NCBI GenBank assembly: GCA_903840165.1
Contig: CAIMEY010000065.1
Span: 24,375 to 88,374 of the forward strand
DNA length: 64,000 bases
Source: an uncultured Myxococcales bacterium
GTDB lineage: Bacteria; Myxococcota_A; UBA9042
Direction of reading: 5' to 3'
A model generated the notes under the pieces. It searched no databases. It saw nothing but the letters and a program-made list of their open reading frames with translations, and was not told the origin of the DNA. Made by a program: the position numbers and the translations under genes. Every line of letters begins with the position of its first letter. Within the stretch, counting starts at the first letter, position 1. Shown piece after piece: positions 38,754 through 40,163 of the stretch.

Positions 38754-40163
38754 ATGCGCACACGTCAGAAGCTTTCGATCTTGCTGCTCCTGCTGATTTG
38801 CACTGCAGGCGGTGCGACTTATTGGGCGCGGCACTTGCCAACGACCGGCGCAGGAGCGACCGCGTCGCCCCCAGCCGCTCAGCCGCGCGACGTGCCGCAT
38901 TTGGCGAGTTCTGGCGTGGTCGAGGCCGCGGAGATTCACGCCCAACTCCTTGCCGCTGCTCAGAATATGCCCGAGCCGACCTTGGCTTCTGTGACCAATC
39001 ACGCCTCGGCCCCCAGCCAAGCGCCCGTGCCGATGCCCGAAGCGCCTTTGCCGCCCGTGCCGGAGAATCAGCAACTCGCGATCGGCTTTAGCAGCAATGT
39101 GGTGGGTGAAGTTGACCCTTGCGGTTGAGCACATCACCCGCTGGGCGGTCTGGCTCGGCGAATGCAGTGGTGGCTAGGCAGGAACAAGGCGCGACCGCAT
39201 ACGTTGCTGCTTGAGGCCGGCAATTTGTTCATTTCCAGCGCGCAGATGCCGACCGAACGACCCGGTGAAGGCGTGGCCCGCGCCGAAGTCTTCCTGCAGG
39301 TCATGCACAAGATGGGCTATGCCGCGATAAACGTGGGCATTGGCGAACTGGCCTTGGGTCTAGAGCCCCTGCAGCGCCTAGCCAAGCAGTACAAAATGCC
39401 CTTGTTGTCTGCGAACTTACTCCATCAGGGCAAGCCGGTGTTTGCGCCAACCTGGGTCAAGGACTATGGCCTGGTCAAGGTGGGCGTCTTTGGCCTGATC
39501 ACCTCGACGCCGCCTGAGCTCGGGAAGTGGGTTGCAAATCAAGGACTTAATATTGCTGATCCGGTAGGTTCGGCCAAGCAAGCAGTGGCGGAGTTAAGGC
39601 AGCAGCATTGCGAGCTCATCGTCTTGCTGAGTCAGCTGTCGCGGCAGGAAGCCCAGGTGGTGGCCGATCAAGTGCCTGAGATTACGCTGATTCTTGGGTC
39701 GACGGGCATGGAGGCGTCGACGCAGCTTACGGCCATGGGCCACGGCTTCTTTGCCGATGCGTTTACCAAGGGCAAGTACATGGGGGAGATCCTGGTCTCG
39801 GTTCGCGGCGACAAAACTCAGTTTTACGCTGCAAATCTACGGAGTTCCTTGGCCGCTGAGCGGGCGGACTTGGCCAGTCAGGTCCAAGGGCTGCAAAGTC
39901 AGTTGGAGACGGCGAACAAGCCTGGTGGGCCTTTGCAGCTCACGCCGGAGACCCGGCAGCAAATGGAACGACAACTTGCTGGCGTTCGCGCGCATTTACA
40001 GCGAGTTTCCATGGAGTTAGAGGGTAATATTGAGACGCCCACCTCTGCCAGTACGGTCGAGTTGACCATGGGCTCGCTGGACAATGAGATCGTCGATGAC
40101 GCCTGGGCGGACGCGAAGGTTAAGAAATTGCAAGAGAAGTTCCCCAAGCAGAACGGGCACTAA
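38754..40163 (+). CDS. Candidate selenoprotein: metallophosphatase/5'-nucleotidase-like protein with in-frame UGA (Sec) in a PCG-U-x4-LGGLARR motif
   Basis: ATG 38754 (MRTRQKLSILLLLLICTAGG...) reads in one frame through TGA 39126-39128 to the stop at 40163: ...QQLAIGFSSNVVGEVDPCG[TGA]AHHPLGGLARRMQWWLGRNKARPHTLLLEAGNLF.... The ORF track shows 38550..39128 and 39162..40163; the 33 nt between them are in frame and encode AHHPLGGLARR. Confidence 0.8.
39126..39160 (+). promoter_or_regulatory. Candidate bacterial SECIS element (UGA plus downstream stem-loop)
   Basis: UGA, 10 nt (GCACAUCACC), stem CGCUGGGC (39139-39146), loop GGUCUG (39147-39152), stem GCUCGGCG (39153-39160): 8 pairs, 6 Watson-Crick and 2 G-U. 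The loop starts 18 nt after UGA and contains GGUCU. Confidence 0.72.

What the first reader, a model, noticed from the sequence alone, without database searches (positions are those of the whole stretch)
39126..39160. Bacterial SECIS-like hairpin exactly downstream of the in-frame UGA, with a GGUCUG loop at +18 nt
Stem 39139-39146 (CGCUGGGC) pairs with 39153-39160 (GCUCGGCG) across all 8 positions, leaving loop GGUCUG. Bacterial SECIS elements sit immediately 3' of the UGA, with the apical loop roughly 16-37 nt away and a G in the first two loop bases. From memory, the E. coli fdhF SECIS also exposes GGUCU, about 18 nt after its UGA. The same bases must encode PLGGLARR, so part of the match could reflect coding constraint.
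Basis: partly seen in the sequence, partly recalled or inferred. Interest (0 to 1): 0.85.

Follow-up and report, generated by a model that had tools for sequence, protein, structure and literature searches.

The report
SECIS hairpin in Myxococcota selenoprotein gene
Right after an in-frame stop codon, this freshwater myxobacterial-type genome has an RNA hairpin of the kind that tells bacteria to insert selenocysteine instead of stopping; its loop is kept almost letter for letter in 65 related genes that have the stop codon and has mostly decayed in relatives that use cysteine, so the gene almost certainly encodes a full-length selenium-containing protein.

Summary
Confirmed. UGA 39126-39128 interrupts one 469-codon frame (38754-40163). 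The hairpin 39139-39146/39153-39160, loop GGUCUG, starts 18 nt after the UGA and folds as described (-14.8 kcal/mol). Stability alone is unremarkable: z is about -1 against shuffles. Comparison across Myxococcota carries the case. GGCGGTCT at the Gly-Gly-Leu codons is present in 62 of 65 TGA genes and 3 of 30 Cys homologues; codon usage predicts about 6%. The loop-presenting hairpin beats synonymous-codon shuffles in TGA genes (mean z -1.86) and not in Cys genes (-0.06). The third stem pair switches between G-C and U-A at least four times on the tree. The genome has tRNA-Sec, SelA, SelB and SelD. The protein has the 5'-nucleotidase (UshA) fold with its metal ligands replaced and a Cys-Gly-Sec motif. 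The UshA-like CxU selenoprotein family has been known since 2008 (NCBIfam NF041198), but this branch scores below that model's cut-off, and databases hold it mostly as post-UGA fragments. It is a real SECIS in a new, divergent Myxococcota branch of a known selenoprotein family.

The parts
38754..40163 (+). Selenoprotein gene, 469 codons with UGA read as Sec (start codon inferred; stop TAA included). N-terminal hydrophobic helix, then a 5'-nucleotidase-like domain and a C-terminal coiled helix pair.
   Evidence: Open across the UGA; homologues cover both sides of it with 1 TGA inside; AlphaFold pLDDT 83
39120..39128 (+). Cys-Gly-Sec (CxU) motif codons TGC-GGT-TGA
   Evidence: aligned with Cys-Gly-Cys in homologues
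39126..39128 (+). UGA codon read as selenocysteine
   Evidence: TGA aligned with Cys codons in 30 homologues and with TGA in 64 other homologues; Sec machinery in genome
39139..39146 (+). SECIS stem, 5' arm CGCUGGGC
39147..39152 (+). SECIS apical loop GGUCUG; GGUCU nearly invariant in TGA members
39153..39160 (+). SECIS stem, 3' arm GCUCGGCG
39162..40163 (+). Post-UGA fragment (internal ATG, 333 aa) held in databases as a separate protein; most likely a misannotation, not a gene of its own

Best explanation
The hairpin is a genuine bacterial SECIS element. It sits in the mRNA of an UshA-like selenoprotein gene; SelB carrying GTP and selenocysteyl-tRNA binds its GGUCU loop 18 nt behind the UGA, so the ribosome inserts Sec at codon 125 and makes a 469-residue protein instead of stopping after 124. 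The product is most likely an exported or membrane-anchored protein on a 5'-nucleotidase (metallophosphatase) scaffold that has lost the metal site and works through a Cys-Gly-Sec redox motif placed just after the old first metal motif. Shown here: the hairpin, its selective conservation with the TGA, compensatory change, the Sec machinery, the fold and the loss of metal ligands. Inferred: SelB binding, readthrough, location and redox chemistry.
For: Frame continuous across UGA with conserved protein on both sides. tRNA-Sec 74.6 bits, SelB, SelA and SelD all over curated cut-offs in the same genome. In 56 class genomes, those with the TGA form carry tRNA-Sec in 30/33 vs 11/23 without it (p 0.0006). 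GGCGGTCT in 62/65 TGA vs 3/30 Cys members; expected 5.8% from codon usage. UGA-to-loop spacing 18 nt in 64/65. Loop-presenting hairpin vs synonymous shuffles: mean z -1.86, 51% with p<=0.05 in TGA genes; -0.06 and 0/30 in Cys genes. Covariation 13 two-sided cells vs 5.4 by shuffle, 0/500 as high; slid registers 1-9; Cys set shows none. G-C/U-A switches at pair 39143-39156: 6 changes on the tree, at least 4 forced by well-supported branches. Cys copies L024, L026, L050, L042 and L062 nest among Sec copies. Fold: CD73, UshA and SoxB among the matches, all at E <= 2e-15; same families by sequence profile.
Against: Folding energy of the element alone is ordinary for this GC-rich sequence. Members with Ser/Pro after Leu show no covariation in their own register, and one clade (f17) has a C-A mismatch or bulge in the stem. 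Three TGA genomes lack a detected tRNA-Sec; all are draft genomes. NF041198 score is 190.6 against a cut-off of 275. No expression or selenium data exist.
Confidence: 0.95

Rival explanations
1. The hairpin is a by-product of coding constraint: the peptide PLGGLARR in a GC-rich genome tends to give a hairpin by itself, and the UGA may be decoded without it or be a plain stop.
For: Energy of the whole 45-nt stretch is not better than synonymous shuffles; single-sequence z is about -1.
Against: Cys homologues that keep the GGL core mostly do not keep the hairpin or the GGT-CT letters; the uncommon GGT codon is fixed in 63/65 TGA genes; repeated compensatory changes.
Confidence: 0.03
2. Nonsense mutation, pseudogene or sequencing error: the gene is broken, or is two separate ORFs with restart at ATG 39162.
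For: Databases hold the 333-aa downstream ORF as a protein.
Against: TGA at the same codon in 65 loci from many families of the phylum (L047 adds one more), with conserved sequence from about 20 residues upstream through the end; the conserved PCGU and GGLARR lie either side of the UGA and before the ATG.
Confidence: 0.01
3. UGA is read as an ordinary amino acid (code change, e.g. Trp) rather than Sec.
For: None found.
Against: Complete Sec machinery; the UGA aligns with Cys, not Trp.
Confidence: 0.01

Closest known systems
E. coli fdhF SECIS (formate dehydrogenase H)
   Same: Same 18-nt UGA-to-loop spacing and GGUC(U) apical loop closed by a short stem; hairpin immediately 3' of UGA and inside the coding sequence.
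   Different: Stem sequence unrelated; no bulged U in the upper stem of the window element (the fdhF fold has one); loop 6 nt here against 4 in the fdhF fold.
UshA-like CxU selenoprotein family (COG0737; NCBIfam NF041198 UshA_like_PCGU; PMC2398784, PMC9312934, PMC13188914)
   Same: Best NCBIfam hit, E 4e-56, aligned over model positions 20-378; CxU motif of the same kind (PCGU).
   Different: 190.6 bits, below the curated 275; positions 379-519 of the model are not matched; lineage is Myxococcota.
UshA-like selenoprotein family 2 (NF049981)
   Same: Weaker match, 49.7 bits.
   Different: Motif reported as CxxU (PMC13188914), not CxU; below cut-off 140.
5'-nucleotidases UshA/CD73 and thiosulfohydrolase SoxB
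   Same: Same fold.
   Different: Metal-ligand motifs replaced: GNHE to GIGE, SHLG to SQLS, GGHSH to GSTGM, GD to GN.

Membership tests
Bacterial SECIS (bSECIS model, PMC13188914 Fig. 2) | Apical loop 3-9 nt and upper stem 4-16 bp | tested here: met
   6-nt loop, 8 bp
Bacterial SECIS (bSECIS model, PMC13188914 Fig. 2) | G in the first two loop positions | tested here: met
   Loop GGUCUG
Bacterial SECIS (bSECIS model, PMC13188914 Fig. 2) | 16-37 nt between UGA and apical loop | tested here: met
   18 nt here, and in 64/65 TGA loci
Bacterial SECIS (bSECIS model, PMC13188914 Fig. 2) | MFE <= -7.5 kcal/mol | tested here: met
   -14.8; a weak criterion in GC-rich DNA
Bacterial SECIS (bSECIS model, PMC13188914 Fig. 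2) | Binds SelB and causes Sec insertion | not testable with these tools
   Needs binding or reporter assay; SelB present in genome
Selenoprotein gene | In-frame UGA aligned with Cys in homologues, in a genome with SelA, SelB, SelD and tRNA-Sec | tested here: met
UshA-like CxU selenoproteins (COG0737) | UshA/5'-nucleotidase homology with CxU motif | tested here: met
NCBIfam NF041198 equivalog | Score at or above curated cut-off (275 bits) | tested here: not met
   190.6 bits here; 138-208 in six relatives
5'-nucleotidase / metallophosphatase enzymes | Conserved dinuclear metal ligands | tested here: not met
   Motifs replaced in alignment

The most novel reading that the evidence does not exclude
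A phylum-wide Myxococcota branch of UshA-fold proteins has exchanged metal-dependent hydrolysis for selenium-based redox chemistry at the same active-site loop, and is a major reason these environmental lineages keep the selenocysteine machinery; its SECIS tolerates a one-base sliding of the stem so long as the GGUCU loop stays in place.
Probability: 0.35. Interest if true: 0.5.

Novelty: new member of a known kind. Interest (0 to 1): 0.35.

Why it matters
It turns a single-sequence guess into a well-supported selenoprotein and shows that annotation truncates this gene in Myxococcota: most of the closest database hits are 296-335 aa, the size of the part after the UGA. It gives a comparative set of 65 SECIS elements plus recent Sec-to-Cys losses with partly kept hairpins (L024, L050), useful for asking what SelB needs besides the GGUCU loop. 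The function of the CxU UshA-like proteins is, to my knowledge, still unknown.

Tried and rejected
Single-sequence folding energy and whole-window synonymous shuffles: no signal, reported as negative. Covariation in the Ser/Pro members taken alone: none beyond shuffles. Pattern scan of the genome for TGA plus GGTCT: 116 hits against 77 for the reversed control; a follow-up script reached only some of the first 30 and none of those looked like a gene interrupted by UGA, so the short motif is not diagnostic alone and no second selenoprotein was identified. Coding-constraint, pseudogene and code-change readings were rejected as given under rivals. Pfam gave no usable domain for the protein.

Full report
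What is there. The frame that starts at ATG 38754 and ends at 40163 is open for 469 codons except for a single TGA at 39126-39128. It is the MFE and the centroid structure. The remembered likeness to E. coli fdhF was checked against E. coli genomes and folded: same spacer, GGUC in the loop.

Is it more than chance? By energy alone, no: z is -1.06 against dinucleotide shuffles, and across 65 TGA genes the 45-nt stretch folds no better than synonymous-codon shuffles of the same gene (mean z -0.19; Cys genes 0.03). The comparative tests below are what decide it.

The gene is a selenoprotein gene. The same genome holds tRNA-Sec (74.6 bits), SelB, SelA and SelD, all over their curated cut-offs. Homologues were found in 47 of 56 genomes of the class and in 207 of 387 genomes of the phylum at E <= 1e-15. 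Named records place the relatives among Myxococcales/Deltaproteobacteria MAGs, several with lake names in their titles. In 65 collected loci, this one included, the TGA stands at the same codon; in 30 others a Cys codon stands there; L047 is a further TGA case, found separately. Within the class, tRNA-Sec was found in 30 of 33 genomes with the TGA form and 11 of 23 without (Fisher p 0.0006). Most of the closest database proteins are post-UGA fragments.

SECIS test 1, letters. At the Gly-Gly-Leu codons that hold the loop, GGCGGTCT is found in 62 of 65 TGA genes and 3 of 30 Cys genes (Fisher 4e-17). GGT is only 12% of Gly codons in the rest of these genes, so codon usage predicts about 5.8%. The spacer is 18 nt in 64 of 65 and 15 nt in one. 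Relatedness of the sequences means these p-values overstate independence; the tree-based test below does not have that fault.

SECIS test 2, hairpin. With the GGUCU bases held unpaired, the hairpin is better than synonymous shuffles in TGA genes (mean z -1.86; 51% at p <= 0.05; mean energy -11.3) but not in Cys genes (mean z -0.06; 0 of 30; -4.8).

SECIS test 3, compensation. In 28 distinct elements with Ala after the Leu, 87.5% of pair cells form, with 13 two-sided changes against 5.4 by shuffling (0 of 500 as high); sliding the register breaks pairing (28-44% paired). In the Cys set there is no such signal. The pair 39143-39156 alternates between G-C and U-A (codons CTG...CGG and CTT...AGG/AAG, or TCT...AGA); a tree needs six changes, at least four of them forced by well-supported branches. 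In members with Ser or Pro after the Leu the same loop fits a stem shifted by one base, with a 5-nt loop; this subset shows no covariation of its own. One clade (f17) carries a bulge or C-A mismatch instead.

Decay in Cys forms. On the protein tree, Cys copies L024 with L026, L050, L042 and L062 sit inside or beside Sec clades, some with a Sec paralogue in the same genome. L024 and L050 still carry the loop letters but have damaged stems; L026 has lost both. SECIS remnants in Cys genes derived from Sec genes were described before (PMC1794560). The tree was not rooted by an outgroup, so direction is inferred from nesting.

The protein. NCBIfam's best match is NF041198, UshA-like (seleno)protein, E 4e-56 but 190.6 bits against a cut-off of 275; six relatives also fall below it. 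The UshA-like CxU family was reported in 2008 from ocean metagenomes and is listed in the 2022 and 2026 reviews. Sequence and fold comparison both give 5'-nucleotidases, CD73 and SoxB (model pLDDT 83; the loop with the Sec itself is low confidence). The metal motifs are replaced (GIGE for GNHE, SQLS for SHLG, GSTGM for GGHSH), so hydrolysis by the usual two-metal mechanism is unlikely; a Cys-Gly-Sec redox role is inferred. One relative (L047) reads Ser-Gly-Sec, so the Cys is not indispensable.

Verdict. The SECIS reading is supported at about 0.95. It is a new, divergent branch of a known selenoprotein family, carrying a standard kind of bacterial SECIS; the claim that rests on inference is what the protein does.

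Noticed in passing
L047 (G033), TGA locus: The motif reads PSG-Sec instead of PCG-Sec, with an intact SECIS-like stretch (CTTGGCGGTCTTGCCAGG): the neighbouring Cys can be lost while Sec stays.
   Followed up: partly
36913-38673 (-): Divergently transcribed 586-aa putative membrane glycosyltransferase-like protein (weak NF047440 match) keeps its place beside the selenoprotein gene in at least 11 relatives.
   Followed up: partly
40239-41066 (-): BKACE-family enzyme gene (PF05853) just downstream, found beside the selenoprotein gene in 8 relative loci.
   Followed up: partly
35358-36959 (-): Glutamate-cysteine ligase (GCS2, PF04107), first step of glutathione synthesis, close by; matches at the flank of five relatives.
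   Followed up: partly
42356-45649 (-): 1097-aa protein with repeated Lamin Tail Domains, thrombospondin type 3 repeats and DUF4215, also near the gene in several relatives.
   Followed up: no
L024, L026 (G038, G040): Two genomes of one genus carry Cys forms that nest within Sec forms yet still have tRNA-Sec, so other selenoproteins may be using it.
   Followed up: no
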